Origin: Brachyspira hampsonii
GTDB taxonomy: Bacteria; Spirochaetota; Brachyspiria; Brachyspirales; Brachyspiraceae
DNA length: 64,000 nt
NCBI RefSeq assembly: GCF_002214805.1
Contig: NZ_CP019914.1
Location: 1,178,001-1,242,000, forward strand
Direction of reading: 5' to 3'
The translations under genes were made by a program, and so were the position numbers. Below the pieces are notes generated by a model that did not search any database, was not told where the DNA came from, and worked only from the letters and a program-made list of their open reading frames with translations. The stretch's first letter is position 1; the number at the start of each line of letters is the position of its first letter. Positions 12,665-42,764 of the stretch are shown here, piece after piece.

Positions 12665-12700
12665 AAAAAGGAAGTCGGTTTTACTGATTTCCTTTTTTTA
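12665..12700 (+). terminator. Intrinsic terminator after second oppA-like gene
   Basis: AAGGAAGTC pairs with GATTTCCTT (one G-U pair) and is followed by a T run ending at 12699. It lies 20 bases after the stop codon. Confidence 0.85.
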
Positions 12701-12718
12701 TTAAAATCAATTACATAC

Positions 12719-13028
12719 CCCGCCCTTTAAATTTATTGTTAACACTGTATTCATAGTTTTAATAAGATATACGGCTAAAAAAGAAAAAGCATGCCCCACC
12801 CTAGTTGTTATTAGGTTTATTGTATTTTTTACCGCACGGTTAGCAAAATTTAAAATATAATAAAAATTGTATTTATAAATTAATTCAAAAACTTTAGATT
12901 CACTAACCGTGCGTTTGAGAAATAAAAAATTTACACTCCGCTTGGGTGGGATACTATAATATCTGAATTAAACAATAAAAAATAATGAAATTCTAATAAA
13001 AAATAAAGCAGCAAATATATAGGGCGGG
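12719..13028. repeat. Mirror-image GC-box intergenic element, copy A
   Basis: The element fills the gap between two convergent genes. In order it holds CCCGCCC (12719-12725), CCCACCC (12795-12801), the left arm CGCACGGTTAG (12833-12843), the perfectly complementary right arm CTAACCGTGCG (12903-12913), GGGTGGG (12944-12950) and GGGCGGG (13022-13028). Box spacing is 76-78 bases, and 38 bases separate the start of the inner CCC box from the arm. Everything between is AT-rich and has no open frame of note. Two more copies lie at 32943-33251 and 40304-40621. Confidence 0.85.
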
Positions 13029-13042
13029 CAATTAGAATAAAT

Positions 13043-13606
13043 TTACTTTTTTAAATTTCTGTAGTGATAAATTAGCATATCATAAGGATAAAGTTTAAAA
13101 GAATCATTATAAACATTCTCAAGTAAATTTTTTATTAAATTAAGCTTATCTTTAAAAGTTTTATTTTTATCTCTTATTTTAGTAAACTCTGTAAAAAATG
13201 ATTTTCTAACTATCTTCATAAAAATACTTATTCTTATCATCTCATCAAAAAATTTCCCGTTTGGCACTCTTAATTTTTTGATTATAATAAAGAAAATGGA
13301 TAAAAAATAAAGAACAGATGCTATTCTAATAAAATAAATAATAGTGAAATCCACACCAACCTTATCAAGATAAATACTAAAAATAGTATAATACTCTCCT
13401 CTCGAGTTTAAAGCCTGAATAATAAATATTGCAAGAAAATAAGGAATTAAATAAAGCAGCTTTTTTATAGTTTTATAAAAAGACTTTGTAAATATTATAT
13501 GAACTATAAAAAGAGCTGCTAAAGTATATATTAAAAAATTAACTTTTATAAAAAATATAGTTATTAATATAAATAAAGCTAAAATGATATATAGTATGTA
13601 AAGCAT
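13043..13606 (-). CDS. Membrane protein, possibly EcfT/CbiQ-like
   Basis: This 187-residue protein has about four hydrophobic segments (near residues 2-20, 24-42, 48-66 and 90-112) and a basic cytoplasmic tail of about 65 residues. The order 'KKLLYLIPYFLAIFIIQAL', a short polar loop, then 'FIRIASVLYFLSIFFII' recalls the transmembrane coupling subunit (EcfT/CbiQ) of vitamin transporters, but the match is weak and no ATPase genes are adjacent. Its ATG overlaps the stop codon of efp by one base, so it is probably translated by coupling with EF-P. Confidence 0.6.
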   Translation of the reverse strand: MLYILYIILALFILITIFFIKVNFLIYTLAALFIVHIIFTKSFYKTIKKLLYLIPYFLAIFIIQALNSRGEYYTIFSIYLDKVGVDFTIIYFIRIASVLYFLSIFFIIIKKLRVPNGKFFDEMIRISIFMKIVRKSFFTEFTKIRDKNKTFKDKLNLIKNLLENVYNDSFKLYPYDMLIYHYRNLKK

Positions 13607-19333: not shown

Positions 19334-22300
19334 TTACAGCAGCTGATATGCCAAAAATATAACAACTATAACTGCAAAAATAGAAATGGATAATATAGTA
19401 ACATCGCTTATTTTTTTATCTAATGTTTTATTATCTTTACATCTTTCCTCTTTATTTTTCACATATCTTATATATTCAGAATTATTATTAACATTATAAA
19501 CATCAGATTTTCTGCTTACTGAATCAAATAACTCTTCATACTTTATATTATTTTTATTCAAGATATCATTTACAGTTTTTATGAACTCATCATTCTTTGC
19601 TTCCTGATTATTCAATCTTTTATTGATAATATCAGCAAACTCTTCAAAATTAGAATTGTTAGGATTATATTGAATATCTTTGTTAGCAAGTTTATTAATC
19701 TCTTCTTCCAATTCTTTATAATGTTTTCTCAAATCTGATAGTTCTTTAAAATTCTTGAGATTCTGCTCTAGCATAATACTGTTATAATTAGCATTATTTT
19801 TTTCTATTTTTTCGTCTATTTTTTCATCTACGCTGTTTGATAATTCTTCTTTAAGATTATTTAAATTCTCTTTCTCTTCTTCTAAGAACTTAGTTTGTTC
19901 TTCTCTAACTTCTTCTACTCTAGTGTTTAGGCTGTCTATCTCTTTTTTATTATCTTCTGTCTTAACTCCTAATTGATTTATTAATTCATCGTATTTGGAA
20001 TTATTTACTAAGAGAGAATCTTCTAAATCTTTCTGTACTTTTTTCAAGCCTGAAAGCTCTTTAAAATTCTTGAGATTCTGCTCTAGCATTATGCTATTAT
20101 AATTAGCATTATTTTTTTCTATCTTCTCATCTATTTTTTCATCTACGCTGTTTGATAATTCTTCTTTAAGATTATTTAAATTCTCTTTCTCTTCTTCTAA
20201 GAACTTAGTTTGTTCTTCTCTAACTTCTTCTACTCTAGTGTTTAAGCTGTCTATCTCTTTTTTATTATCTTCTGTTTTAACTACTAATTGATTTATTAAT
20301 TCATCATATTTGGAATTATTTACTAAGATAGAATCTTCTAAATCTTTCTGTACTTTTTTCAAACCGGAAAGTTCTTTAAAATTCTTAAGATTCTGTTCTA
20401 ACATAATACTGTTATAATTAGCATTATTCTTTTCTATTTTTTCATCTACACTATTAGATAATTCCTCTTTGAGATTATTTAAATTCTCTTTCTCTTCTTC
20501 TAAGAACTTAGTTTGTTCTTCTCTTACCTCTTCTACTCTGCTATTTAAACCGTCTATTTCTTTTTTATTATCTTCTGTTTTAACTCCTAATTGATTTATT
20601 AATTCATCATATTTGGAATTATTTACTAAGATAGAATCTTCTAAATCTTTCTGTACTTTTTTCAAACCGGAAAGTTCTTTAAAATTCTTAAGATTCTGTT
20701 CTAGCATTATGCAGTTATAATTAGCATTATTTTTTTCTATCTTCTCATCTATTTTTTCATCTACGCTGTTTGATAATTCTTCTTTGAGATTATTTAAATT
20801 CTCTTTCTCTTCTTCTAGGAATTTAGTTTGTTCTTCTCTAACTTCTTCTACCCTAGTGTTTAAGCTGTCTATTTCTTTTTTATTATCTTCTGTCTTAACT
20901 CCTAATTGATTTATTAATTCATCATATTTGGAATTATTTACTAAGATAGAATCTTCTAAATCTTTCTGTACTTTTTTCAAACCGGAAAGTTCTTTAAAAT
21001 TCTTAAGATTCTGTTCTAGCATAATACTGTTATAATTAGCATTATTCTTTTCTATTTTTTCATCTACACTATTAGATAATTCCTCTTTGAGATTATTTAA
21101 ATTCTCTTTCTCTTCTTCTAAGAACTTAGTTTGTTCTTCTCTTACCTCTTCTACTCTGCTATTTAAACCGTCTATTTCTTTTTTATTATCTTCTGTCTTA
21201 ACTCCTAATTGATTTATTAATTCATCATATTTGGAATTATTTACTAAGATAGAATCTTCTAAATCTTTCTGTACTTTTTTCAAACCGGAAAGTTCTTTAA
21301 AATTCTTAAGATTCTGTTCTAGCATTATGCTGTTGTAATTAGCATTATTTTTTTCTATTTTTTCGTCTATTTTTTCATCTACACTATTAGATAATTCCTC
21401 TTTGAGATTATTTAAATTCTCTTTCTCTTCTTCTAAGAACTTAGTTTGTTCTTCTCTTACCTCTTCTACTCTGCTATTTAAACCGTCTATTTCTTTTTTA
21501 TTATCTTCTGTCTTAACTCCTAATTGATTTATTAATTCATCATATTTGGAATTATTTACTAAGATAGAATCTTCTAAATCTTTCTGTACTTTTTTCAAAC
21601 CGGAAAGTTCTTTAAAATTCTTAAGATTCTGTTCTAGCATTATGCTGTTGTAATTAGCATTATTTTTTTCTATTTTTTCGTCTATTTTTTCATCTACGCT
21701 GTTTGATAATTCTTCTTTAAGATTATTTAAATTCTCTTTCTCTTCTTCTAGGAATTTAGTTTGTTCTTCTCTAACTTCTTCTACCCTAGTGTTTAAGCTG
21801 TCTATTTCTTTTTTATTATCTTCTGTCTTAACTGCTAATTGATTTATTAATTCATCATATTTGGAATTATTTACTAAGATAGAATCTTCTAAATCTTTCT
21901 GTACTTTTTTCAAGCCGGATAGTTCTTTAAAATTCTTAAGATTCTGTTCCAGCATTATGCTATTATAATTAGCATTATTTTTTTCTATTTTTTCATCTAC
22001 GCTGTTTGATAATTCTTCTTTGAGATTATTTAAATTCTCTTTCTCTTCTTCTAAAAATTTATTTTGTTCTTCTCTAACTTCTTCTACCCTAGTGTTTAAG
22101 CTGTCTATTTCTTTTTTATTATCTTCTGTCTTAACTGCTAATTGATTTATTAATTCATCATATTTGGAATTATTTACTAAGATAGAATCTTCTAAATCTT
22201 TCTGTACTTTTTTCAAGCCGGATAGTTCTTTAAAATTCTTAAGATTCTGTTCCAGCATTATGCTATTATAATTAGCATTATTTTTTTCTATTTTTTCATC

Positions 22301-24007
22301 TACGCTGTTTGATAATTCTTCTTTGAGATTATTTAAATTCTCTTTCTCTTCTTCTAAGAACTTAGTTTGTTCTTCTCTTACCTCTTCTACTCTGCTATTT
22401 AAACCGTCTATTTCTTTTTTATTATCTTCTGTCTTAACTCCTAATTGACTTATTAATTCATCGTATTTGGAATTATTTTCATTAACTGAAGCATAAACTG
22501 TATTAGAAATATTTTCTTTTATGCTGTTTTCTAAATCTTTATAATTTTTTCTTAAATCTGATATCTCTTTAAAATTTTTGAGATTCTGCTCTAGCATTAT
22601 ACTATTATAATTAGCATTATTTTTTTCTATTTTTTCATCTATAGTTTCATTAATACTATTAGATAATTCCTCTTTAAGATTATTTAAATTTTCTTTGATA
22701 TTATTTAAATCTTCTTTTTCCTCTTCTAAGAATTTATTTTGTTCTTCTTTAGATTCTTCTAATTTTGTATTTAAGCTCTCCATCTCTTTTCTATGTTTGA
22801 ATGAATTGTCTGACAATTTATTATTAATATCATTTATTAAATCATCATATTTTAAACTATTTATACTTACTGTATTATCTATTTTTTCTACAAAATCTTT
22901 TAAATCTGAATGCTCTTTCTTTAAGCTGTCAATCTCATTATAATTTTTTAAATTCTGATCCAACATTAATGTACTAAATTGATTTTCTGCTGTAGAAAGT
23001 TTTTCATCATATAGAGATTTATACCTATCTACTTTTTCATTAATGTCTTTAATATCAATTAATAAACCTTCATAATTTTTATTTAAATTTCCTTTTTCTT
23101 TATCTAAAAATTTCGTTTGCTCTTCTTTTGATTCATTTATTTTATTATTTAAATTTTCTATTTCTCTTTTATACTCTTCTGAATGAGTATCTAATTTATT
23201 ATTGATATTATTAATATTATTTATTACTTCATCGTATTTTGTATTATTCTCATTGATAGAGTTTTCTAAATCTTTCTGACTCTTTCTTAAATTAGAAATA
23301 TCTTTAAAATTTTTGAGATTCTGCTCAAGCATTATACTATTGTAATTAGCATTATTTTTTTCTATTCTTTCATCTATAGTTTCATTAATACTATTAGATA
23401 ATTCCTCTTTGAGATTATTTAAATTTTCTTTTTCTTCTTCTAGAAATTTATTTTGTTCTTCTCGGCTTTCTTCTAATTTTATATTTAAACTTTCTATCTC
23501 TTTTTTATACTCTTCTGAATGAGTATCTAATTTATTATTGATATTATTAATATTATTTATTACTTCATCATATTTTGTATTATTCTCATTGATAGAGTTT
23601 TCTAAATCTTTCTGATTCTTTCTTAAATTAGAAATATCTTTAAAATTTTTGAGATTCTGCTCAAGCATTATATTATTATAATTGGAATTATTCTTATCTA
23701 TTTTTTCATCTATCTTATCATCAACATTATTATACAATTCTTTTTTTAATTCATTTATAAGTTCATCATATTTTAAGCTGTCTTTATTCATAGTTTCCGC
23801 TGCAAATTTTAATAAATCTTCATCTTGTACAATCTCTTTAATAATATGTTTTTTTTCATCTTCTGTTATTTTATCATTAGAAAAAATATTTTCTAAATCT
23901 TTTTCCAGCTTGTCTATTCTTTCATAAATATTCACAATTTTATTATCAAGAGAATTTCCGCCATCTTCTATTAAATCTTTTTTTATCATATCATCATTTG
24001 CAGCCAT
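19334..24007 (-). CDS. Giant repetitive coiled-coil protein with C-terminal membrane anchor
   Basis: This 1557-residue protein is almost entirely charged, heptad-like sequence rich in Glu, Lys, Asn and Leu, and is predicted to be one long coiled coil. It is built from units of 101 or 105 residues: the phrase M-L-(E/D)-Q-N-L-K-N occurs 13 times, and the nine later occurrences are nearly identical. Each unit runs NNANYNSIMLEQNLKNFKEL, then KVQKDLEDSI, then NSKYDELINQL, then REEQTKFLEEEKENLNNLKE. There is no signal peptide. The last about 20 residues (SISIFAVIVVIFLAYQLL) form a single hydrophobic segment, so it is probably tail-anchored with its body in the cytoplasm. GAGG precedes the ATG. The family is unknown to me; a structural or tethering role is an inference. 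Confidence 0.9.
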   Translation of the reverse strand: MAANDDMIKKDLIEDGGNSLDNKIVNIYERIDKLEKDLENIFSNDKITEDEKKHIIKEIVQDEDLLKFAAETMNKDSLKYDELINELKKELYNNVDDKIDEKIDKNNSNYNNIMLEQNLKNFKDISNLRKNQKDLENSINENNTKYDEVINNINNINNKLDTHSEEYKKEIESLNIKLEESREEQNKFLEEEKENLNNLKEELSNSINETIDERIEKNNANYNSIMLEQNLKNFKDISNLRKSQKDLENSINENNTKYDEVINNINNINNKLDTHSEEYKREIENLNNKINESKEEQTKFLDKEKGNLNKNYEGLLIDIKDINEKVDRYKSLYDEKLSTAENQFSTLMLDQNLKNYNEIDSLKKEHSDLKDFVEKIDNTVSINSLKYDDLINDINNKLSDNSFKHRKEMESLNTKLEESKEEQNKFLEEEKEDLNNIKENLNNLKEELSNSINETIDEKIEKNNANYNSIMLEQNLKNFKEISDLRKNYKDLENSIKENISNTVYASVNENNSKYDELISQLGVKTEDNKKEIDGLNSRVEEVREEQTKFLEEEKENLNNLKEELSNSVDEKIEKNNANYNSIMLEQNLKNFKELSGLKKVQKDLEDSILVNNSKYDELINQLAVKTEDNKKEIDSLNTRVEEVREEQNKFLEEEKENLNNLKEELSNSVDEKIEKNNANYNSIMLEQNLKNFKELSGLKKVQKDLEDSILVNNSKYDELINQLAVKTEDNKKEIDSLNTRVEEVREEQTKFLEEEKENLNNLKEELSNSVDEKIDEKIEKNNANYNSIMLEQNLKNFKELSGLKKVQKDLEDSILVNNSKYDELINQLGVKTEDNKKEIDGLNSRVEEVREEQTKFLEEEKENLNNLKEELSNSVDEKIDEKIEKNNANYNSIMLEQNLKNFKELSGLKKVQKDLEDSILVNNSKYDELINQLGVKTEDNKKEIDGLNSRVEEVREEQTKFLEEEKENLNNLKEELSNSVDEKIEKNNANYNSIMLEQNLKNFKELSGLKKVQKDLEDSILVNNSKYDELINQLGVKTEDNKKEIDSLNTRVEEVREEQTKFLEEEKENLNNLKEELSNSVDEKIDEKIEKNNANYNCIMLEQNLKNFKELSGLKKVQKDLEDSILVNNSKYDELINQLGVKTEDNKKEIDGLNSRVEEVREEQTKFLEEEKENLNNLKEELSNSVDEKIEKNNANYNSIMLEQNLKNFKELSGLKKVQKDLEDSILVNNSKYDELINQLVVKTEDNKKEIDSLNTRVEEVREEQTKFLEEEKENLNNLKEELSNSVDEKIDEKIEKNNANYNSIMLEQNLKNFKELSGLKKVQKDLEDSLLVNNSKYDELINQLGVKTEDNKKEIDSLNTRVEEVREEQTKFLEEEKENLNNLKEELSNSVDEKIDEKIEKNNANYNSIMLEQNLKNFKELSDLRKHYKELEEEINKLANKDIQYNPNNSNFEEFADIINKRLNNQEAKNDEFIKTVNDILNKNNIKYEELFDSVSRKSDVYNVNNNSEYIRYVKNKEERCKDNKTLDKKISDVTILSISIFAVIVVIFLAYQLL
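19730..22620 (-). repeat. Tandem DNA repeats of about 303/315 bp inside the coiled-coil gene
   Basis: At DNA level the units recur every 303 or 315 bases; the 12-base difference is an extra DEKI codon block in some units. Many 100-base stretches are identical between units, which favours copy-number change by recombination without breaking the frame. Confidence 0.9.
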
Positions 24008-32277: not shown

Positions 32278-32646
32278 CTATTTCTTAAAAATAAAGAATA
32301 CTGCTAATATCAAACATAAAAAACCTATAAAATGATTTATTCTTAAAGTTTCTGTTTTAAAAAATACTACAGTAAAAATAGTAAATATAGTTAATGTAAT
32401 AACTTCCTGCATAACTTTAAGCTGCATTAATGAGAAAGGTCCTCCATTACCTTGAAACCCTATTCTATTTGCCGGAACCTGAAAACAGTATTCAAATAAA
32501 GCAATACCCCAGCTTATTAATATAATTATAGGAAGTGATAGTTTTTCAAAGCCTTTTATCTCGCTGAATTTTAAATGTCCGTACCAAGCAAATGTCATAA
32601 ATGTATTTGACATAATAAGAAGTAATATAGTTGTTATGGCTTTCAT
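32278..32646 (-). CDS. DUF486 family small membrane protein
   Basis: This 122-residue protein has four hydrophobic segments, near residues 3-20, 37-54, 76-96 and 100-120. The strongly conserved block FEYCFQVPANRIGFQGNGGP followed by FSLMQLKVMQEVITL identifies the DUF486 family, which is related to small drug/metabolite-type membrane proteins. No substrate is established that I know of. GGAGG lies upstream of the ATG with long spacing. Its leader contains a hairpin and a promoter with operator-like repeats about 210 bases upstream, so it may be a regulated gene. Confidence 0.9.
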   Translation of the reverse strand: MKAITTILLLIMSNTFMTFAWYGHLKFSEIKGFEKLSLPIIILISWGIALFEYCFQVPANRIGFQGNGGPFSLMQLKVMQEVITLTIFTIFTVVFFKTETLRINHFIGFLCLILAVFFIFKK

Positions 32647-32734
32647 AATAATATTTTAATCCTCCATTTATAATTTTTTTATTGATAAAATATTATAAAT
32701 TATAAAAAATAATTTGCTATATTTATTTTTACAA

Positions 32735-32773
32735 TTTATAAAAAAATATTACCCCCTACTTATCATAGGGGGC
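32735..32773 (-). terminator. Terminator-like hairpin in the leader of the DUF486 gene
   Basis: On the minus strand CCCCCTA and TAGGGGG form a 7-base-pair GC-rich stem, followed by TAATATTTTTTTATA. It lies about 90 bases upstream of the DUF486 start, inside what would be its transcript. It would end a small RNA or act as an attenuator. Confidence 0.6.
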
Positions 32774-32807
32774 ATACAGTTTAATTAAATGAAGGTTATA
32801 AAATATA

Positions 32808-32829
32808 TTGTATCAATTTAGGGATACAA
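32808..32829 (-). other. Small hairpin in the same leader
   Basis: TTGTATC and GATACAA are perfectly complementary around an 8-base loop. It sits between the promoter at 32871-32898 and the terminator-like hairpin, so the same transcript would carry both. Confidence 0.45.
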
Positions 32830-32853
32830 AGTTGTTGACTTTATAAATACTCT

Positions 32854-32898
32854 CTAACATTTGTTAGTATATTCTAACATATTTTTAAACTTTGTCAA
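32854..32898 (-). promoter_or_regulatory. Promoter overlapped by operator-like repeats
   Basis: On the minus strand TTGACA (32893-32898) and TAGAAT (32871-32876) are 16 bases apart. The -10 is covered by the perfect inverted repeat TGTTAG-N6-CTAACA (32862-32879). The left arm is shared with a second palindrome, CTAACA-TT-TGTTAG (32854-32867). Three half-sites over a core promoter is the usual look of a repressor site. No regulator gene is adjacent. Confidence 0.6.
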
Positions 32899-32942
32899 TA
32901 CATAAAAACAAAAAATTTATTTTTTTATTAATATTACATACG

Positions 32943-33251
32943 CCCGCCCTTTTTCATTAATAAATTCTCATGCAATTTTTAACTACTCATTTCTTATAAA
33001 CTAAATTAGAATATATAGCACCCTCCCAAGCTTAAATTAGATTTTCAACATCTTTAACGCACGGTTAATGCATTTATTTATATAGTTAAAATATTATTAT
33101 TAATAAAATTATATAAAAAATTTTACTAACCGTGCGTTAATGAAAGCAGTAATATTAACAAAAATTTAGGGTGGGATTTATAATGACAGAAAAGACTACA
33201 AAAAAATGATATCTATAAACTCTAAAATAAACAATAAATATAAAGGGTGGG
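32943..33251. repeat. Mirror-image GC-box intergenic element, copy B
   Basis: The order is as in copy A: CCCGCCC (32943-32949), CCCTCCC (33021-33027), left arm TTAACGCACGGTTA (33054-33067), right arm TAACCGTGCGTTAA (33127-33140), GGGTGGG (33169-33175) and GGGTGGG (33245-33251). The 14-base arms are perfect complements. Boxes are 78 and 76 bases apart. This element and the promoter region above account for most of the 726-base gap 32647-33372. Confidence 0.85.
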
Positions 33252-33317
33252 ATTAAAAATAAATCAAAAAAGATAAAGAAAAATAAATATAGAGATATAA
33301 CTATTATATATTCTTAA

Positions 33318-33360
33318 AAAATACATAAAAAGAAATGGCTTTTACAGTCATTTCTTTTTA
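33318..33360 (-). terminator. Intrinsic terminator of the chemoreceptor gene
   Basis: AAAAAGAAATG and CATTTCTTTTT pair, and on the minus strand the stem runs into ATGTATTTTTT. It lies just after the stop codon. Confidence 0.75.
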
Positions 33361-33372
33361 TGATTTTATATG

Positions 33373-35178
33373 TTAAAACTTAAAATTATTAATCTGATCA
33401 ACCATATCTTCTATTTTTGCTCTAACTTCTTTTGCCGAACTAGCATTTGCCTCTGCTAAATCACTATTTTCTCCTGTAATAGAATTAAGCTGTCTCACAG
33501 AAACATTTATCTGATTAATACTGTCGGCTTCTATTACAGCCCGTTCTGATATAGAAGTCAATTTATTAAGCATATCCTGTGCTAAAGATTCAATATCAGC
33601 AAGTATTTTAGAAGAATTTTCTACAGCTTTGTTTCCTACATCTACTTTAGCCAAAGCATCATTAATAGTATCTGTGATATTTTTAGCCGTTTCATCTACA
33701 TTCTGAGCAAGAGATCGTATCTCGCTTGCTACCACCGCAAAACCTTTACCCTGATCCCCTGCTCTTGCCGCTTCTACCGCTGCATTTAATGCTAATATAT
33801 TTGTCTGAAAAGCAATAGATTGTATAAGTTTTGTCATCTCTGATATCTTTTTACTAGATTCAGATATTTCATTCATACTATTTATAATTTCTGAAGATGA
33901 TTCTACCCCTACTTTTGTAGCATCTGCCACTTTTACACTCATATCCTTAGCGTCATTAGACTGAATATTTGTTTCATCAAGAGATGATGATAGAGATTCT
34001 ATCAAACTGGATAATTCCTCAAGAGAAGAAGCCTGAGTGTTAGTTCTGTCGGATAAATTTGTACTTCCGTCAGCAACAGTATCTATTTCATTATTAATAA
34101 AATTCAGAGAATCCTGCAAAGAATGTATAGAGTTACCAAGAGATTTCTGCATATCCTGTATAGAATTAACTAAAACCCCAGTTTGGTCTGATTTGTTTAA
34201 TAACTTATCTTCAAATACAGCATTGAAATGCTTATCTGTCATATTTTTAATAACATCTATAGCTCTATCTAAAGTCTGAGATAATGGAGTAACATTCAGC
34301 ATGACAAGTATAAACTCAATCAATAAAAATCCTATAGCAACTACAACCATTATAATAGAAAGTGTAGTTATTTTATTATTAAGATAAGATGAACTTCCAT
34401 TTCCTACTAAAAGCCAAGGAGTATTTGGTATATCATATACAGCTGTCCATTTGGATTTACTAATATTAAAAGCATAATCTGTTCCATTAAGTCTAGGAGC
34501 ATTAAGTTCTGTATATATAGTTCTTTGTTTATTAAAAAGTAAAGAGTTATCTGAATATGTAACAAACTGTCCATCTTCTAATGATATATAATATTTGCTG
34601 TCACTATTACTAAGTAAAAGCTCTGATATTTTCTTGAAAGATATATCTATGCCAATTACTCCTATAAAAGTTCCGTTTAATGTTACACCTTTTGATACAG
34701 TTATAACTGTTTCTTTACTTTCAGCATCTATATACGGGGAGCTAATAAATATTTTAGAAGGATTTTTTTTGGCTTCTATATACCATTCTCTAGTAGTTTG
34801 GTCAAATCCTTCTATATTATCTCCGTATACTATTACCAATAATCCTCCGTCTTTATATGATACTGTTCCGCTGAAATGTATATTTTTAATCTCTTCTTTT
34901 ATACTTTCTAATTCTTTAAAAGAATCAAGCATTTGAGTATAATCTGTTTCATATTTACAATATGCTGCTAAAACTTCTATTTGTGAATAATAATAATTAA
35001 GCCAAGTAGTAACTGATGTTTCATTCTTATACATATTAGATTCTATCTCTAAGGCAAATTCTATTTCGTACATAGGTATAAAATATAACATCAATGCTAC
35101 AACCATAACTATTATAAACGCAGCAAACGGAAGTAAAAATTTAAGCATTAATACATACTTCTTTTTCTTATCATTCAT
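33373..35178 (-). CDS. Methyl-accepting chemotaxis protein
   Basis: This chemoreceptor senses ligands outside the membrane and controls the CheA kinase. The 601-residue protein has a first membrane segment near residues 13-33, a dCACHE-type periplasmic sensor domain to about 265 (including [18 protein letters not shown] and [19 protein letters not shown]), a second membrane segment near 270-292, and a HAMP-like linker. The cytoplasmic signalling domain has the invariant hairpin tip [20 protein letters not shown] followed by [21 protein letters not shown] precedes the ATG. No CheB/CheR-binding pentapeptide is at the C-terminus, which ends in INNFKF. Promoter and partners are not evident nearby, and the ligand is unknown. 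Confidence 0.96.
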
Positions 35179-37807: not shown

Positions 37808-38716
37808 TTAAAATAAGCTAGGCTCTTCTTCCATAACTTTATTTTTATATCTGTTATAAACACTGTCTTCTGTATTGAGTTCCTCTTTAGTTTTGTATGT
37901 GATATTATATTTTTCTTCTAACGCTTCTATTTTTGAGTATAGTTTTTCTTTATATTCATCTTTAAGAAGTCCGTCAGTTCCGTAAATGTACAAATATTTT
38001 TTATAATGCTCTGGAAATGTTTGTCTCACAAAGTTTAAATATATTTTTCTGCATTCACCTCTTAATTTAAGTACATCTGCCGCACAATAGTCTATATTAT
38101 ATTCTTTAACTTTTTTAAAAATATTTTCTACTTCATTTTCAGTAATAAAAGGCATGACAGGCATAGTATGAACTGCTGTTATAGCTTTTGTTTTTTTAAA
38201 CTCTTTTAATATATTTAATCTTCTCTCTGGGCTTATAACATTAGGCTCTATTAGAGAAGATAATTTCTCATCTAATGCTGTTATAGTTGTCGCTATTCTT
38301 ACAGGTACTATACTTGAAAGCTCATCTATCAAATCAAAATCTCTCAATATCAAATCGCTTTTTGTGGATATGCACATTGGTGTCTTATATTTTATTAAGA
38401 GTTTTAAAACATCTCTCATAAGTTTATAATCTTTTTCTGCTTCTTGATAATTGTCTGTAACGCTTCCTAGATTAATTATATCTCTCTTCCAATTTCTTGA
38501 TGATAATTCTTTTTCTAAAACTTCTGCAATATTCTTTTTTACAAATATTTCACCGAAAAAATCTTTTGAATTAATATATTTATGAGAATATACAGCAAAA
38601 CAATAATAGCATTTATGAAGACAGCCTCTGTAAATATTCAAATCATAACAGAATCCATATTCATTATCTACTTTATTTAAAGCTGATTTGCAGTTAATCT
38701 CTCTGTATTTAATCAT
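37808..38716 (-). CDS. Radical SAM protein, SPL (spore photoproduct lyase-like) family
   Basis: The 4Fe-4S cluster motif C-x3-C-x2-C is present as YRGCLHKCYYCFAVYSH near residue 32, close to the N-terminus as in the Rv2578c/PA0069-type SPL-related proteins. Further family marks are NLGSVTDNYQEAEKDYKLMR and SLIEPNVISPERRL. At 302 residues it matches that group rather than true SplB (about 340), and since the organism is not a spore former, repair of spore photoproduct is unlikely. Its reaction is unknown. The ribosome binding site (AGAGA) is modest. It stands alone between the PTS gene and the divergent rtcB. Confidence 0.88.
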   Translation of the reverse strand: MIKYREINCKSALNKVDNEYGFCYDLNIYRGCLHKCYYCFAVYSHKYINSKDFFGEIFVKKNIAEVLEKELSSRNWKRDIINLGSVTDNYQEAEKDYKLMRDVLKLLIKYKTPMCISTKSDLILRDFDLIDELSSIVPVRIATTITALDEKLSSLIEPNVISPERRLNILKEFKKTKAITAVHTMPVMPFITENEVENIFKKVKEYNIDYCAADVLKLRGECRKIYLNFVRQTFPEHYKKYLYIYGTDGLLKDEYKEKLYSKIEALEEKYNITYKTKEELNTEDSVYNRYKNKVMEEEPSLF

Positions 38717-38863
38717 ATAATTTATCTCTTTTTATAATATATTAAAACATTATATTTATATATAATACTGTATATTAGTATTTTTATCAAGTACGATTAT
38801 TAAAATATTAATAAAATTTTACAAGGTTAAAAATTTTTTAATATATAACATAAATGAAAATTT

Positions 38864-38891
38864 TTGACATTATAATAATTTATAATATTAT
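38864..38891 (+). promoter_or_regulatory. Promoter of rtcB
   Basis: TTGACA (38864-38869) and TATTAT (38886-38891) are 16 bases apart, about 30 bases before the ATG, with AAAGGAG between. Confidence 0.55.
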
Positions 38892-38921
38892 TAACAGTTG
38901 AAGAGAAAGGAGTATACTTTC

Positions 38922-40184
38922 ATGATAGAGTTAAAAGGAAAATACAATAAAGACTGCAAAATATTTACTGACAATATCGATGAAGAATCTTATTCTTTGA
39001 TTTATAATATTTTAAATGAAAAAGCAAGCGAAAATGTGAAAGTTAGGATAATGCCGGACACTCATATTGGAAAGGGTATAGTAATAGGTTTTACAATGCC
39101 TTTAACTGATAGAGTAAATCCTTTTCATATAGGCGTTGATATAGGCTGCGGAATGCTTACTTCAAAATTAAATGATAATATAAAAAATATTGGGCTTGAA
39201 AAAATTGATAAAACTATAAAACAAAATATTCCTATGGGTTTTAAAACTCATAAAAAAAGTAATTATTCATTTTTTAATTTTAAAGAATTAAATGAAATTA
39301 TGAGAAACTTTATTATAGGTTATAATAAAAGATATAATACAAACTTTGCCATATTTGAGATAGATAATGATTACATAGAAAAATTATGCCAAAGAATAGA
39401 AATGGATTTAGAAAAATTTCACAACTCTATAGGAACATTAGGAGGAGGAAATCATTTTATAGAAATAGGAACCTCCATTAATAATGATTACTTTCTCACT
39501 ATACATTCAGGCTCAAGAAATTTCGGCACAATGGTATGCGAATATCATGTAAGAAACAATAAAAAAAGAATAGAAGAAGCAAAAGATTTTTTAAATAGTG
39601 CAAATGATGCTAATGATAAAACAACAAAAGAATATTATGAGTATAATGAAATAGTAAGAAGCGGAGATTATATATACGGCAAAGCTATGTTTGACTACTG
39701 CATTGATATGGTAATATCTCAGTATTATGCAAAAATAAACCGAGAGGCTATGCTTAACATTATAAAAGATTCTCTTAATATAAAATTAGAAGATACTTTT
39801 TCATCTATACATAATTTTATAGATTTTGAAGATTTTATAATAAGAAAAGGTGCCATAAGAAGTTATAAGGGAGAAAAAATTATAATTCCTTTTAACATGC
39901 GGGACGGTATACTAATATGCGAAGGAAAAAGCAATGAAGATTGGAATTTTTCAGCACCTCATGGAGCTGGAAGAGTGCTTTCAAGAATACAGGCAAGAAA
40001 ACAAATAGATATGAAAGATTTTATTGAATCTATGAAAGGTATTTATTCAAGCAGCATATCAAAAAATACTTTAGATGAAGCTCCTCAGGCATATAAAGAT
40101 TCAAAGGAAATAGAAAAATTAATAATGCCTACAGCAGATATAATAGACAGATTAAAACCTGTACTCAATATAAAAGCCTCTTAA
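38922..40184 (+). CDS. rtcB: RtcB-family RNA ligase
   Basis: RtcB joins RNA ends carrying 2',3'-cyclic phosphate or 3'-phosphate to 5'-OH, using GTP and Mn2+, in tRNA splicing or RNA repair. Metal and GTP site motifs are visible: HIGVDIGCGMLTS near residue 72, GTLGGGNHFIEIGT near 178, IHSGSRNFG near 202, and the region of the guanylylated His, APHGAGRVLSRIQARK, near 345. ATG 38922 was chosen over an upstream in-frame start because AAAGGAG lies 9 bases before it. The protein is 420 residues. No rtcA or archease gene is beside it. Confidence 0.93.
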   Translation: MIELKGKYNKDCKIFTDNIDEESYSLIYNILNEKASENVKVRIMPDTHIGKGIVIGFTMPLTDRVNPFHIGVDIGCGMLTSKLNDNIKNIGLEKIDKTIKQNIPMGFKTHKKSNYSFFNFKELNEIMRNFIIGYNKRYNTNFAIFEIDNDYIEKLCQRIEMDLEKFHNSIGTLGGGNHFIEIGTSINNDYFLTIHSGSRNFGTMVCEYHVRNNKKRIEEAKDFLNSANDANDKTTKEYYEYNEIVRSGDYIYGKAMFDYCIDMVISQYYAKINREAMLNIIKDSLNIKLEDTFSSIHNFIDFEDFIIRKGAIRSYKGEKIIIPFNMRDGILICEGKSNEDWNFSAPHGAGRVLSRIQARKQIDMKDFIESMKGIYSSSISKNTLDEAPQAYKDSKEIEKLIMPTADIIDRLKPVLNIKAS

Positions 40185-40303
40185 AAAATATAATATCACA
40201 TACAAAACAAAAGAATAACCAGCGTTTATAATATAAGCCACTTCTATGTTTTTATTTTTTATTAATATTTAGTTAAATAAAATTCAAAACCTAATAAAAA
40301 CTT

Positions 40304-40621
40304 GGGCGGGGGCTAAAATTTCCAAGTATACTGTTAAAGATAATGAAAGTTAAATTTTTTGATAAAGTGAAAAAGAATAAAGGGCGGGGTATGTAAATAA
40401 AGTTTTAAAACTTATTTTCACTCCCCACCCTTTAGGCTTATAATTTTAATCTGCTATTTTTGTCTCATTTTTATTTTTAACTCTGCACTGTTATTTCTAC
40501 TGCCCACCCTAGATTTATTTAAATTTAATGCTTTCACAACGCACGAAGAATTTTATTTATAAAATTATAGAAAATAAAAAATATAATGAATTTATAGATA
40601 AAAGCTAATTCACCGTGCGTT
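40304..40621. repeat. Mirror-image GC-box element, copy C (rearranged)
   Basis: GGGCGGG (40304) and GGGCGGGG (40382) come first, 78 bases apart, then CCCACCC (40424) and CCCACCC (40503), 79 apart, then left arm AACGCACG (40538-40545) and right arm CGTGCGTT (40614-40621). The left arm is damaged compared with copies A and B. This looks like the right half of one element placed directly before the left half of another. No G boxes follow the arms. The rest of the gap 40185-40707 shows nothing else. Confidence 0.8.
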
Positions 40622-40707
40622 ATATTCATTATTAAAAAATATTATACAAATAAACTTTCCAGATGCTCACCATTTTTATAAAATAACTCATTTATTACTA
40701 ATAAAAA

Positions 40708-41472
40708 TCATTCCTCTGCACCTAATTCTTTTAACTTTTCTATAGCCTCATCTTCAGAAGCATAATATAAAACTCCGTCTCCGTCTTCATCTGTACTGTT
40801 TATATCCATACCCAAATCCCTAACCAAATATTCAAACACTTCTACATTGTCATTCAAAGCAGCCATATGAAGACCGTTTGCATCATAAATATTTTTAGAG
40901 TTTACCACATCAGGATCAGCCTGTACAAGCATTTTTATAACATCAACATTTCCAGTACCGCAAGCCCATAAAAAAGCATTCCAGCCGTCATCATCTTTTA
41001 CATAAGGGTCTGCCCCATTATCAAGTAAATATTTCATTATACCCAAATCTCTGTAAAATACGGCAAATATCAAAGGCGTAGCACCATTAGCAGAATAGCT
41101 GTCATTCATAAAATCGCTGTATATGCTATCATCTCCATAATAAGACTCATCAATATCTCCGCCATCTTCTATTAATTCCTGTACTCTTTTTAAACTATGA
41201 TTTTCTATAGCCTCAAATATATCATAGTCCTCGCTGTATTCTCCTTCTTTTCTATTGCCGTAAGAAAAAGCAGAATTCATACTAACATATTTACCCTGAA
41301 CCTTTACAACATTAGTATAAGTTTTATGATAAATATTATCAGGATTACTTACATACACAGAATTATTGCTTATGCTTACACTAGCCTCTTCTTTTTTCTT
41401 GCATGATATAATAAAAATAATTGATAATAAAGAAATTAACAATATAGTTTTTAACACTTTTATTCTTTTCAT
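40708..41472 (-). CDS. Ankyrin-repeat lipoprotein, copy 1
   Basis: This 254-residue protein has a lipoprotein signal ending at the Cys of FIISCKKKEE, so it is probably attached to a membrane on the outside of the cytoplasm. About four ankyrin repeats follow from residue 95, for example ATPLIFAVFYRDLGIMKYLL, DNGADPYVKDDDGWNAFLWA and GLHMAALNDNVEVFEYLV. Ankyrin repeats bind other proteins. The start is ATG 41472, placing the signal peptide at the N-terminus; GGTG is the only hint of a ribosome binding site. It is a close tandem paralogue of the gene at 41939-42706. The partner is unknown. Confidence 0.9.
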   Translation of the reverse strand: MKRIKVLKTILLISLLSIIFIISCKKKEEASVSISNNSVYVSNPDNIYHKTYTNVVKVQGKYVSMNSAFSYGNRKEGEYSEDYDIFEAIENHSLKRVQELIEDGGDIDESYYGDDSIYSDFMNDSYSANGATPLIFAVFYRDLGIMKYLLDNGADPYVKDDDGWNAFLWACGTGNVDVIKMLVQADPDVVNSKNIYDANGLHMAALNDNVEVFEYLVRDLGMDINSTDEDGDGVLYYASEDEAIEKLKELGAEE

Positions 41473-41547
41473 AAACACCGCCGTATAGTAATTAATAATT
41501 TGTGAAGTATTATACAATAAAAGCAAATTATTTTCTATTATTATTAA

Positions 41548-41940
41548 TAAAAAATTGCTTCATTAAAAATTAAAAAATCTCGCTTTAAGGCTCTAGCAAT
41601 GATATTGCTAGACGCTCGATTTTTTAATACATTCATCTTGAAACGCTCAATATTTTTTATTGATTATTAATAAAAAATTGCTTCATTAAAAATTAAAAAA
41701 TCTCGCTTTAAGGCTCTAGCAAAGACTCTGTCCGCCTTCGGCGAATTTGCTAGACGCTCGATTTTTTAATCTACTCACCTTAAAACGCTCACAATTTTTT
41801 ATCGATTATTAACAAAAAATTGCTTCATTAAAAAATTAAAAAATCTCGCTTTAAGGCTCTAGCAAAGACTCTGTCCGCCTTCGGCGAATTTGCTAGACGC
41901 TCGATTTTTTAATACTCATCTTGAAACGCTCACAATTTTT
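41548..41940. repeat. Three tandem palindromic units between ankyrin paralogues
   Basis: Three units start near 41548, 41671 and 41813. Each is itself palindromic: AAAAATTG at the left end pairs with CAATTTTT at the right, TTAAAAAATC pairs with GATTTTTTAA, and CTAGCAA pairs with TTGCTAG. In units 2 and 3 a 19-base longer centre holds a further hairpin, CGCC-TTC-GGCG; unit 1 has a shorter centre. CTCGCTTTAAGGCTCTAGCAA-type text is nearly identical in all three. Unit 3 ends on the stop codon of ankyrin copy 2. The units fill the 466-base gap between the two genes. Confidence 0.9.
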
Positions 41941-42706
41941 ACTCTTCTGCCCCTAATTCCTTTAACTTCTCTATTGCTTCATCTTCATCAGCATAATATA
42001 AAACTCCATCACCGTCCTCATCTGTACTGTTTATATCAAAACATAAATCCCTAACCAAATATTCAAACACTTCTACATTGTCATTCAAAGCAGCCATATG
42101 AAGCCCATTTGCATCATACATATTTTTAGAGTTTACAACATCAGAATCATACTGCACAAGCATTTTTATAACATCAACATTTCCAGTACCGCAAGCCCAT
42201 AAAAAGGCATTCCAATTGTAAGGGTAATCATCTTTAGTATAAGGATCAGCACCTTTATCAAGCAAATATTTCATTATACCCAAATCTCTATAAAATATAG
42301 CAAACATTAAAGGAGTAGCTCCGTCAAGATAATAATAATCATTGAAAAAATCGCTATATTTTATCTCACCGCTATAAGTTTGATTTATATCTTCACCTTC
42401 TCCTATTAATTCCATTACTCTTTTTAAGCTATGATTTTCTATAGCCTCAAATATATCATAGTCCTCGCTGTATTCTCCTTCTTTTCTATTGCCGTAAGAA
42501 AAAGCAGAATTCATACTAACATATTTACCCTGTATCTTTACAACATTAGTATAAGTTTTATGGTAAATATTATCAGGATTACTTACATACACAGAATTAT
42601 TACTTATACTTACACTAGACTCCTCTTTTTTCTTGCATGATATAATAAAAATCATTGATAATAAATAAATTAATAATATAGTTTTTAACACTTTTATTCT
42701 TTTCAT
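41939..42706 (-). CDS. Ankyrin-repeat lipoprotein, copy 2
   Basis: This 255-residue paralogue of the neighbouring gene has the same lipoprotein signal (MIFIISCKKKEE). Its first about 100 residues are nearly identical to copy 1 and its four ankyrin repeats are more diverged, notably around residues 105-125, where the acidic insert differs. The 5' DNA, including the bases before the start codon, also matches copy 1, which shows a recent tandem duplication. ATG 42706 is chosen so that the protein begins MKRIKVLKTILL. Its stop codon overlaps the third palindromic unit. Confidence 0.9.
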   Translation of the reverse strand: MKRIKVLKTILLIYLLSMIFIISCKKKEESSVSISNNSVYVSNPDNIYHKTYTNVVKIQGKYVSMNSAFSYGNRKEGEYSEDYDIFEAIENHSLKRVMELIGEGEDINQTYSGEIKYSDFFNDYYYLDGATPLMFAIFYRDLGIMKYLLDKGADPYTKDDYPYNWNAFLWACGTGNVDVIKMLVQYDSDVVNSKNMYDANGLHMAALNDNVEVFEYLVRDLCFDINSTDEDGDGVLYYADEDEAIEKLKELGAEE

Positions 42707-42764
42707 AAACACCGCAATATAGTAATTAATATAATTTGAGATATTATAGCATAATGATTAAAGA

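What the first reader, a model, noticed from the sequence alone, without database searches (positions are those of the whole stretch)
12719..13028. A family of mirror-image intergenic elements with GC boxes every 78 bp around a CGCACGG/CCGTGCG inverted repeat
Two full copies (12719-13028 and 32943-33251) share the same layout: CCC-N-CCC, 76-78 bases later CCC-N-CCC, 37-38 bases later an arm containing CGCACGGTTA, about 78-80 bases later its exact complement, 31-33 bases later GGG-N-GGG, then 76-78 bases to another GGG-N-GGG. The bases between are not conserved, but the spacings are. Conserved spacing with drifting filler suggests the boxes are bound or folded in a fixed geometry. Both copies lie between gene 3' ends or in long non-coding gaps. 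I know of no described element with this layout. Regular G-triplets could also form quadruplexes, but a functional role is inference.
Basis: seen in the sequence. Interest (0 to 1): 0.8.

Follow-up and report, generated by a model that had tools for sequence, protein, structure and literature searches.

The report
Origin-centred GC-box repeats in Brachyspira
Gaps between genes in Brachyspira gut bacteria carry a large undescribed family of DNA elements whose short GC boxes and spacing are kept while the DNA between drifts, and which cluster around the chromosome's replication origin, so they probably help to organise the chromosome.

Summary
The window holds three copies (12719-13028, 32943-33251 and an unreported one at 40304-40619). 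The whole genome holds about 230-267 arms of about 172 bp in 128 blocks, nearly all between genes. The box pattern occurs in 22 of 25 other Brachyspira genomes. Neighbouring arms alternate in orientation, forming a lattice with a 345-bp period: CCCRCCC-78-CCCRCCC-37-CGCACG-73-CGTGCG-37-GGGYGGG-78-GGGYGGG-42. It is not a true mirror: the two arms are consistently different types, so the unit is directional. At two loci followed across species, G/C in the boxes changed at 1-4%, against 28-49% for filler G/C, so the boxes are under selection. The elements centre on the replication origin: in four genomes their circular mean lies 0.7-43 kb from a conserved parS-like pair. Arms do not covary, many stand alone and Rfam has no match, so a structural RNA is unlikely. 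No REP-type (Y1) transposase was found in the genus. Best reading: a protein-binding DNA array acting on the origin-proximal chromosome, working like REP/BIME or macrodomain sites but a member of neither. The binding protein is unknown; a selfish repeat kept near the origin by descent remains possible.

The parts
12699..12849 (+). element 1, left arm: C1 12719-12725, C2 12795-12801, C3 12833-12842
   Evidence: profile hit E 8e-21; boxes
12898..13045 (-). element 1, right arm: C3' 12904-12913, G2 12944-12950, G1 13022-13028
   Evidence: profile hit E 8.5e-21
32932..33072 (+). element 2, left arm: C1 32943-32949, C2 33021-33027, C3 33058-33067
   Evidence: profile hit E 1.2e-18; orthologues in 7 other species
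33120..33258 (-). element 2, right arm: C3' 33127-33136, G2 33169-33175, G1 33245-33251
   Evidence: profile hit E 8.3e-15
   Evidence: profile hit E 1.9e-22; orthologues in 10 other species
40403..40619 (+). element 3, tail-to-tail second arm: C1 40424-40430, C2 40503-40509, C3 CGCACG 40540-40545, C3' 40610-40619
   Evidence: profile hit 40403-40552, E 1e-24

Best explanation
A genus-specific, multi-copy extragenic DNA element that acts as an array of binding sites for an unidentified sequence-specific protein or complex. The GC boxes are the contact points and their spacing (about 38 and 77 bp, in alternation) sets the geometry of the complex. Shown: the boxes are under purifying selection at orthologous loci; filler G/C is near neutral while length is kept; placement is almost only between genes, most often between convergent genes; copies centre on the origin/parS in four genomes. 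Inferred: that a protein binds, and that the role is to shape the origin-proximal chromosome (supercoiling, compaction or segregation), as gyrase-bound REP/BIME or MatP-bound matS sites do elsewhere. Alternating diverged arms would keep dyad sites while avoiding long perfect palindromes, which are unstable.
For: Box G/C substitution 4.0% (14/350) and 1.4% (3/210) at two loci, against 27.8% and 49.4% for filler G/C and 10-38% at four-fold sites of neighbouring genes. In 464 kb of this genome (400 kb sampled evenly, plus the window) 39 of 45 full-length arms keep both boxes intact. 122 of 124 blocks are intergenic; 50/122 lie between convergent genes against 47/300 in the even sample, p 9e-8. 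Rayleigh p 3e-14, 6e-11, 3e-13 and 3e-5 in four genomes, with the mean 0.7, 12, 43 and 7 kb from parS. GC3 skew changes from minus to plus at about 1.5-1.75 Mb. Published work puts the Brachyspira origin away from dnaA (PMC3163572; PMC3532143). Arms alternate in 108 of 110 adjacencies.
Against: No binding protein is identified, and all evidence is from sequence. Three Brachyspira genomes (two at least 99% complete) lack the pattern. Copy number differs several-fold between close relatives (196 here, 63 in G009), so the number is not tightly required. Copies duplicate locally, and X-pattern rearrangement keeps distance to the origin, so origin-centring could be inherited. The selection estimate rests on two loci.
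Confidence: 0.45

Rival explanations
1. A selfish or passively copied extragenic repeat (REPIN/MITE-like). Origin-centring comes from a founder near the origin, local duplication and symmetric rearrangement; box conservation comes from the needs of copying or from gene conversion.
For: Tandem 345-bp duplications and near-identical dispersed copies, e.g. 100% over 207 bp between L039 and L127. A distinct young-looking A-arm subfamily in G009. The most similar copies are neighbours or lie at mirror distances from the origin in this genome.
Against: Boxes at fixed orthologous loci are conserved across species with 31-38% four-fold divergence while filler drifts. Few decayed copies in the evenly sampled DNA. 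No Y1/RAYT transposase in any Brachyspira genome searched; none of 2.9 million viral contigs carries the pattern. No clear target duplication in the one near-identical pair inspected.
Confidence: 0.3
2. Bidirectional transcription terminators or insulators between convergent genes.
For: Enriched between convergent genes; the outer box is within 45 nt of a stop codon in about 35 cases; C-arm filler is U-rich and G-poor if transcribed.
Against: 25 blocks lie between divergent genes, no fewer than background (p 0.15). Genes enter from either arm orientation. The gene left of element 1 has its own hairpin-plus-T-run before the element. Does not explain origin-centring.
Confidence: 0.1
3. A structured non-coding RNA whose GC boxes form stems.
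For: C1/G1, C2/G2 and C3/C3' are complementary; one locus folds 4.5-4.9 sd below mononucleotide shuffles.
Against: Arms of one element are no more complementary to each other than to arms of other elements (z 0.16 and -0.70). Orthologues show 2 compensatory against 20 broken pair cells. 51 of 128 blocks are single arms. No Rfam match in the window except a tRNA.
Confidence: 0.06
4. Sites of recombination that drive symmetric inversions around the origin.
For: The most alike copies on opposite sides of the origin lie at mirror positions (top 5: median 8.5 kb off, 299 kb expected, p 2e-4) and 4 of the 5 are inverted. Local gene-order changes abut two conserved elements.
Against: Not significant in G008 with partial data (p 0.07-0.35). 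Published X-pattern rearrangements explain it by separating neighbours (PMC3163572).
Confidence: 0.09

Closest known systems
REP / BIME (bacterial interspersed mosaic elements) of enterobacteria
   Same: Extragenic, G+C-rich against the genome, inverted units of two subtypes alternating, many copies, densest near the origin (REP density in E. coli highest near the origin and REPs bind gyrase, PMC4820846).
   Different: Unit 172/345 bp rather than about 35 bp (REP size from memory); several separate short boxes with fixed spacing instead of one hairpin; drifting filler; no Y1/RAYT transposase found.
matS/MatP macrodomain sites (from memory)
   Same: Many dispersed sites confined to one chromosomal territory.
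   Different: matS is a single 13-bp palindrome in the terminus region; here multi-box arrays, origin-centred.
parS/ParB centromere
   Same: Origin region; in 11 genomes a piece of the element lies between or beside the parS-like sites.
   Different: Different sequence; parS-like sites also exist where elements are absent.
MITEs / REPINs
   Same: Short, non-coding, repeated, with inverted structure and recent copies.
   Different: No transposase match, no clear target duplication, boxes selected at fixed loci.

Membership tests
REP/BIME | located outside genes | tested here: met
   122 of 124 blocks intergenic
REP/BIME | two subtypes in alternating orientation | tested here: met
   108 of 110 adjacencies inverted; heterotypic arms 33 to 2 at the tail-to-tail dyad
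REP/BIME | 20-40 nt single imperfect palindrome as unit | tested here: not met
   unit 172/345 bp with separate boxes
REP/BIME | RAYT-type Y1 transposase (PF01797) in the genome | tested here: not met
   0 of 26 Brachyspira genomes; found in one outgroup genome and 5 of 14 controls
REP/BIME | binding of gyrase/IHF | not testable with these tools
   needs ChIP or an in vitro assay
MITE | target-site duplication at element ends | tested here: inconclusive
   one near-identical pair compared; no consistent duplication
matS/MatP | 13-bp palindromic site in the terminus macrodomain | tested here: not met
   multi-box unit; centre at the origin/parS
matS/MatP | MatP homologue present | not tested
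   no search made
known structured RNA (Rfam 15) | match at gathering score | tested here: not met
   only a tRNA in the window
parS | TGTTTCACGTGAAACA-like 16-mer within the element | tested here: not met
   2 parS-like sites in the genome at up to 1 mismatch, against about 128 element blocks

The most novel reading that the evidence does not exclude
An origin-domain counterpart of the terminus macrodomain system: more than 100 dispersed multi-box DNA arrays, bound by an unknown Brachyspira protein, that define and fold the origin-proximal part of the chromosome symmetrically around parS.
Probability: 0.3. Interest if true: 0.88.

Novelty: new variant of a known kind. Interest (0 to 1): 0.74.

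Why it matters
It is a large repeat family in a genus that includes animal pathogens, and a search of the open-licence literature, including four Brachyspira genome papers searched by keyword, found no description of it. Fixed spacing with neutral-like filler gives a clean handle on an unknown DNA-binding complex. Its centring on the origin offers an independent marker of the Brachyspira origin, which lies away from dnaA, and a testable case of an origin-proximal chromosome domain.

Tried and rejected
dnaA as origin marker: it put the elements in the 'terminus' half; rejected after GC3 skew, the parS-like pair and two papers placed the origin elsewhere. RNA hairpin through the arms: no covariation. 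Helical phasing of A/T tracts: no 10.5-bp peak in the filler. Polarity relative to the replichores: both orientations on both sides. RAYT-driven REP: no Y1 transposase. Viral origin: no viral contig with the pattern. Ancestral element at parS: that copy is absent in 14 of 25 genomes and partial in most others, so it is probably one member of the family. Mirror-position exchange as a general rule: seen here, not significant in G008.

Full report
Observation. Both reported copies are in the sequence as described. CCCNCCC occurs 12 times in the window on the two strands against 1.27 expected, with no shuffle reaching 12, and every one belongs to one of three elements; the third, at 40304-40619, was missed. 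In the whole genome (one contig of 3,189,639 bp; the window is 1178001-1242000) CCCNCCC-N65-76-CCCNCCC is found 98 times on each strand. The exact CGCACGGTTA...TAACCGTGCG pair is found only in these two loci, because the central boxes normally differ.

Anatomy. I fetched 99 clusters with flanks. The distances between arms are very regular: C1-78-C2-37-C3-73-C3'-36-G2-78-G1-42 and back to C1, period about 345 bp. In units of about 38 bp the gaps alternate 2,1,2,1,2,1. Of 195 arms, 164 have a box-to-box distance of 77-79 and all lie within 74-81. The consensus is roughly TTACATAC-CCCRCCC-TTTA...GCA-CCCRCCC-AAGTTTTTTTAAATTT...CGCACG. A profile finds 267 arms or part-arms in these loci, 230 of them near full length. 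They form 128 blocks: 51 single arms, 56 pairs, the rest chains of up to six. Neighbouring arms are inverted in 108 of 110 cases.

Not a true mirror. At the tail-to-tail dyad one box is CCCGCCC and the other CCCACCC in 33 of 35 informative cases (42 of 49 dyads by a looser pattern). The C3 boxes are likewise mostly CGCACGGT on one side and CGCACGCA on the other. G-type and A-type arms also tend to differ in their flanking motifs. The chain therefore has a direction and a true 345-bp period.

Selection. Elements 2 and 3 have orthologues, with the same spacing, in 7 and 10 other Brachyspira genomes, between the same or locally rearranged genes. At these two loci G/C in the boxes differs from this genome at 1.4% and 4.0% of sites, while G/C in the filler differs at 49% and 28% and four-fold sites of neighbouring genes at 10-38%. 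In DNA that was not chosen for elements (400 kb sampled evenly, plus the 64-kb window) 39 of 45 full-length arms keep both CCCNCCC boxes. The profile was trained on intact arms, so badly decayed copies may be under-counted.

Placement. 122 of 124 blocks lie between genes. Convergent gaps hold 50 of 122 blocks against 47 of 300 gaps in the even sample (p 9e-8). Blocks also occur in divergent gaps, at about the background rate.

Chromosomal distribution. The clusters are concentrated around 1.2-2.0 Mb. dnaA is at 2.957 Mb, which at first suggested the terminus. But third-position GC skew changes from negative to positive at about 1.5-1.75 Mb. A pair of parS-like sites (one mismatch from the consensus, which I took from memory) lies at 1,676,260 and 1,676,458. 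Published analyses place the Brachyspira origin by GC skew away from dnaA (PMC3163572; PMC3532143). The circular mean of the 99 clusters is 1,677,052, 0.7 kb from the parS-like pair. In three other genomes the offsets are 12, 43 and 7 kb (Rayleigh p 3e-14, 6e-11, 3e-13, 3e-5). parS-like sites lie upstream of the rsmI-like gene in all 25 genomes where the region could be read, including two without elements. One ParB gene was found in each of six genomes searched. In 11 genomes a piece of the element lies in this region, in this genome between the two sites; it is mostly partial and absent elsewhere, so I treat it as one member, not the ancestor.

Host range. Within the class, 22 of 25 other Brachyspira genomes have the pattern 28 to 209 times; G001, G003 and G019 have none, and genomes outside the genus have 0-3. 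No viral contig matched.

Dynamics. Tandem duplications of the 345-bp unit and near-identical distant copies exist. G009, a close relative by the PTS gene (99%), has far fewer copies and a distinct A-arm subfamily. In this genome the most similar copies on opposite sides of the origin lie at mirror distances (top 5: median 8.5 kb off against 299 kb expected, p 2e-4). In G008, with partial data, this is not significant. Symmetric rearrangement about the origin, already reported for the genus (PMC3163572), can produce it by separating neighbours.

What it is not. Arms within an element do not pair better than arms between elements, orthologues show few compensatory changes, and Rfam has no match. 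The family fails two REP/BIME criteria: unit size and a Y1/RAYT transposase. Literature searches found no description of such an element in Brachyspira, within an open-licence library only and by keyword.

Interpretation. Selected boxes, kept spacing, near-neutral filler G/C and avoidance of genes point to protein-DNA contacts in a fixed geometry. Origin-centring points to a role in the origin-proximal chromosome. In E. coli, REP density is also highest near the origin and parallels gyrase binding (PMC4820846); this is the nearest functional analogy, and gyrase or another topology or segregation factor is a reasonable candidate. That step is inference. The main alternative is a passively copied repeat whose position near the origin was inherited.

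Limits. The positions in the three other genomes come from a stricter box pattern, and the G009 list was cut short. The selection estimate uses two loci. No expression or binding data were available.

Noticed in passing
L211/L213 (G000:C1:1676260-1676473): Two parS-like sites (TGTTTCACATGAAACA and its reverse complement) 198 bp apart upstream of an rsmI-like gene. The sites recur at this position in 25 Brachyspira genomes, 1.28 Mb from dnaA in this one: a good marker of the origin region.
   Followed up: yes
L039 / L127 and L068 / L096: Near-identical or very similar element copies at mirror distances from the origin (-873/+865 kb and -175/+176 kb), in inverted orientation.
   Followed up: partly
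window 32278-35178 and 37808-41526: Local changes of gene order (DMT6/PPIase and RtcB/radical-SAM) abut conserved elements in some species.
   Followed up: no
L062:1368-2804 and L080:1489-2923: 97% identical segmental duplication of about 1.4 kb that includes an element and a neighbouring short ORF.
   Followed up: no
L201 (G000:C1:1600001-1620000): Ten GGGNGGG/CCCNCCC matches inside ORFs, unlike anywhere else sampled.
   Followed up: no
window 40708-42712: Two adjacent ankyrin-repeat genes next to element 3.
   Followed up: no
window 19334-24007: A single 1557-aa ORF on the minus strand in a strongly skewed stretch; not annotated here.
   Followed up: no
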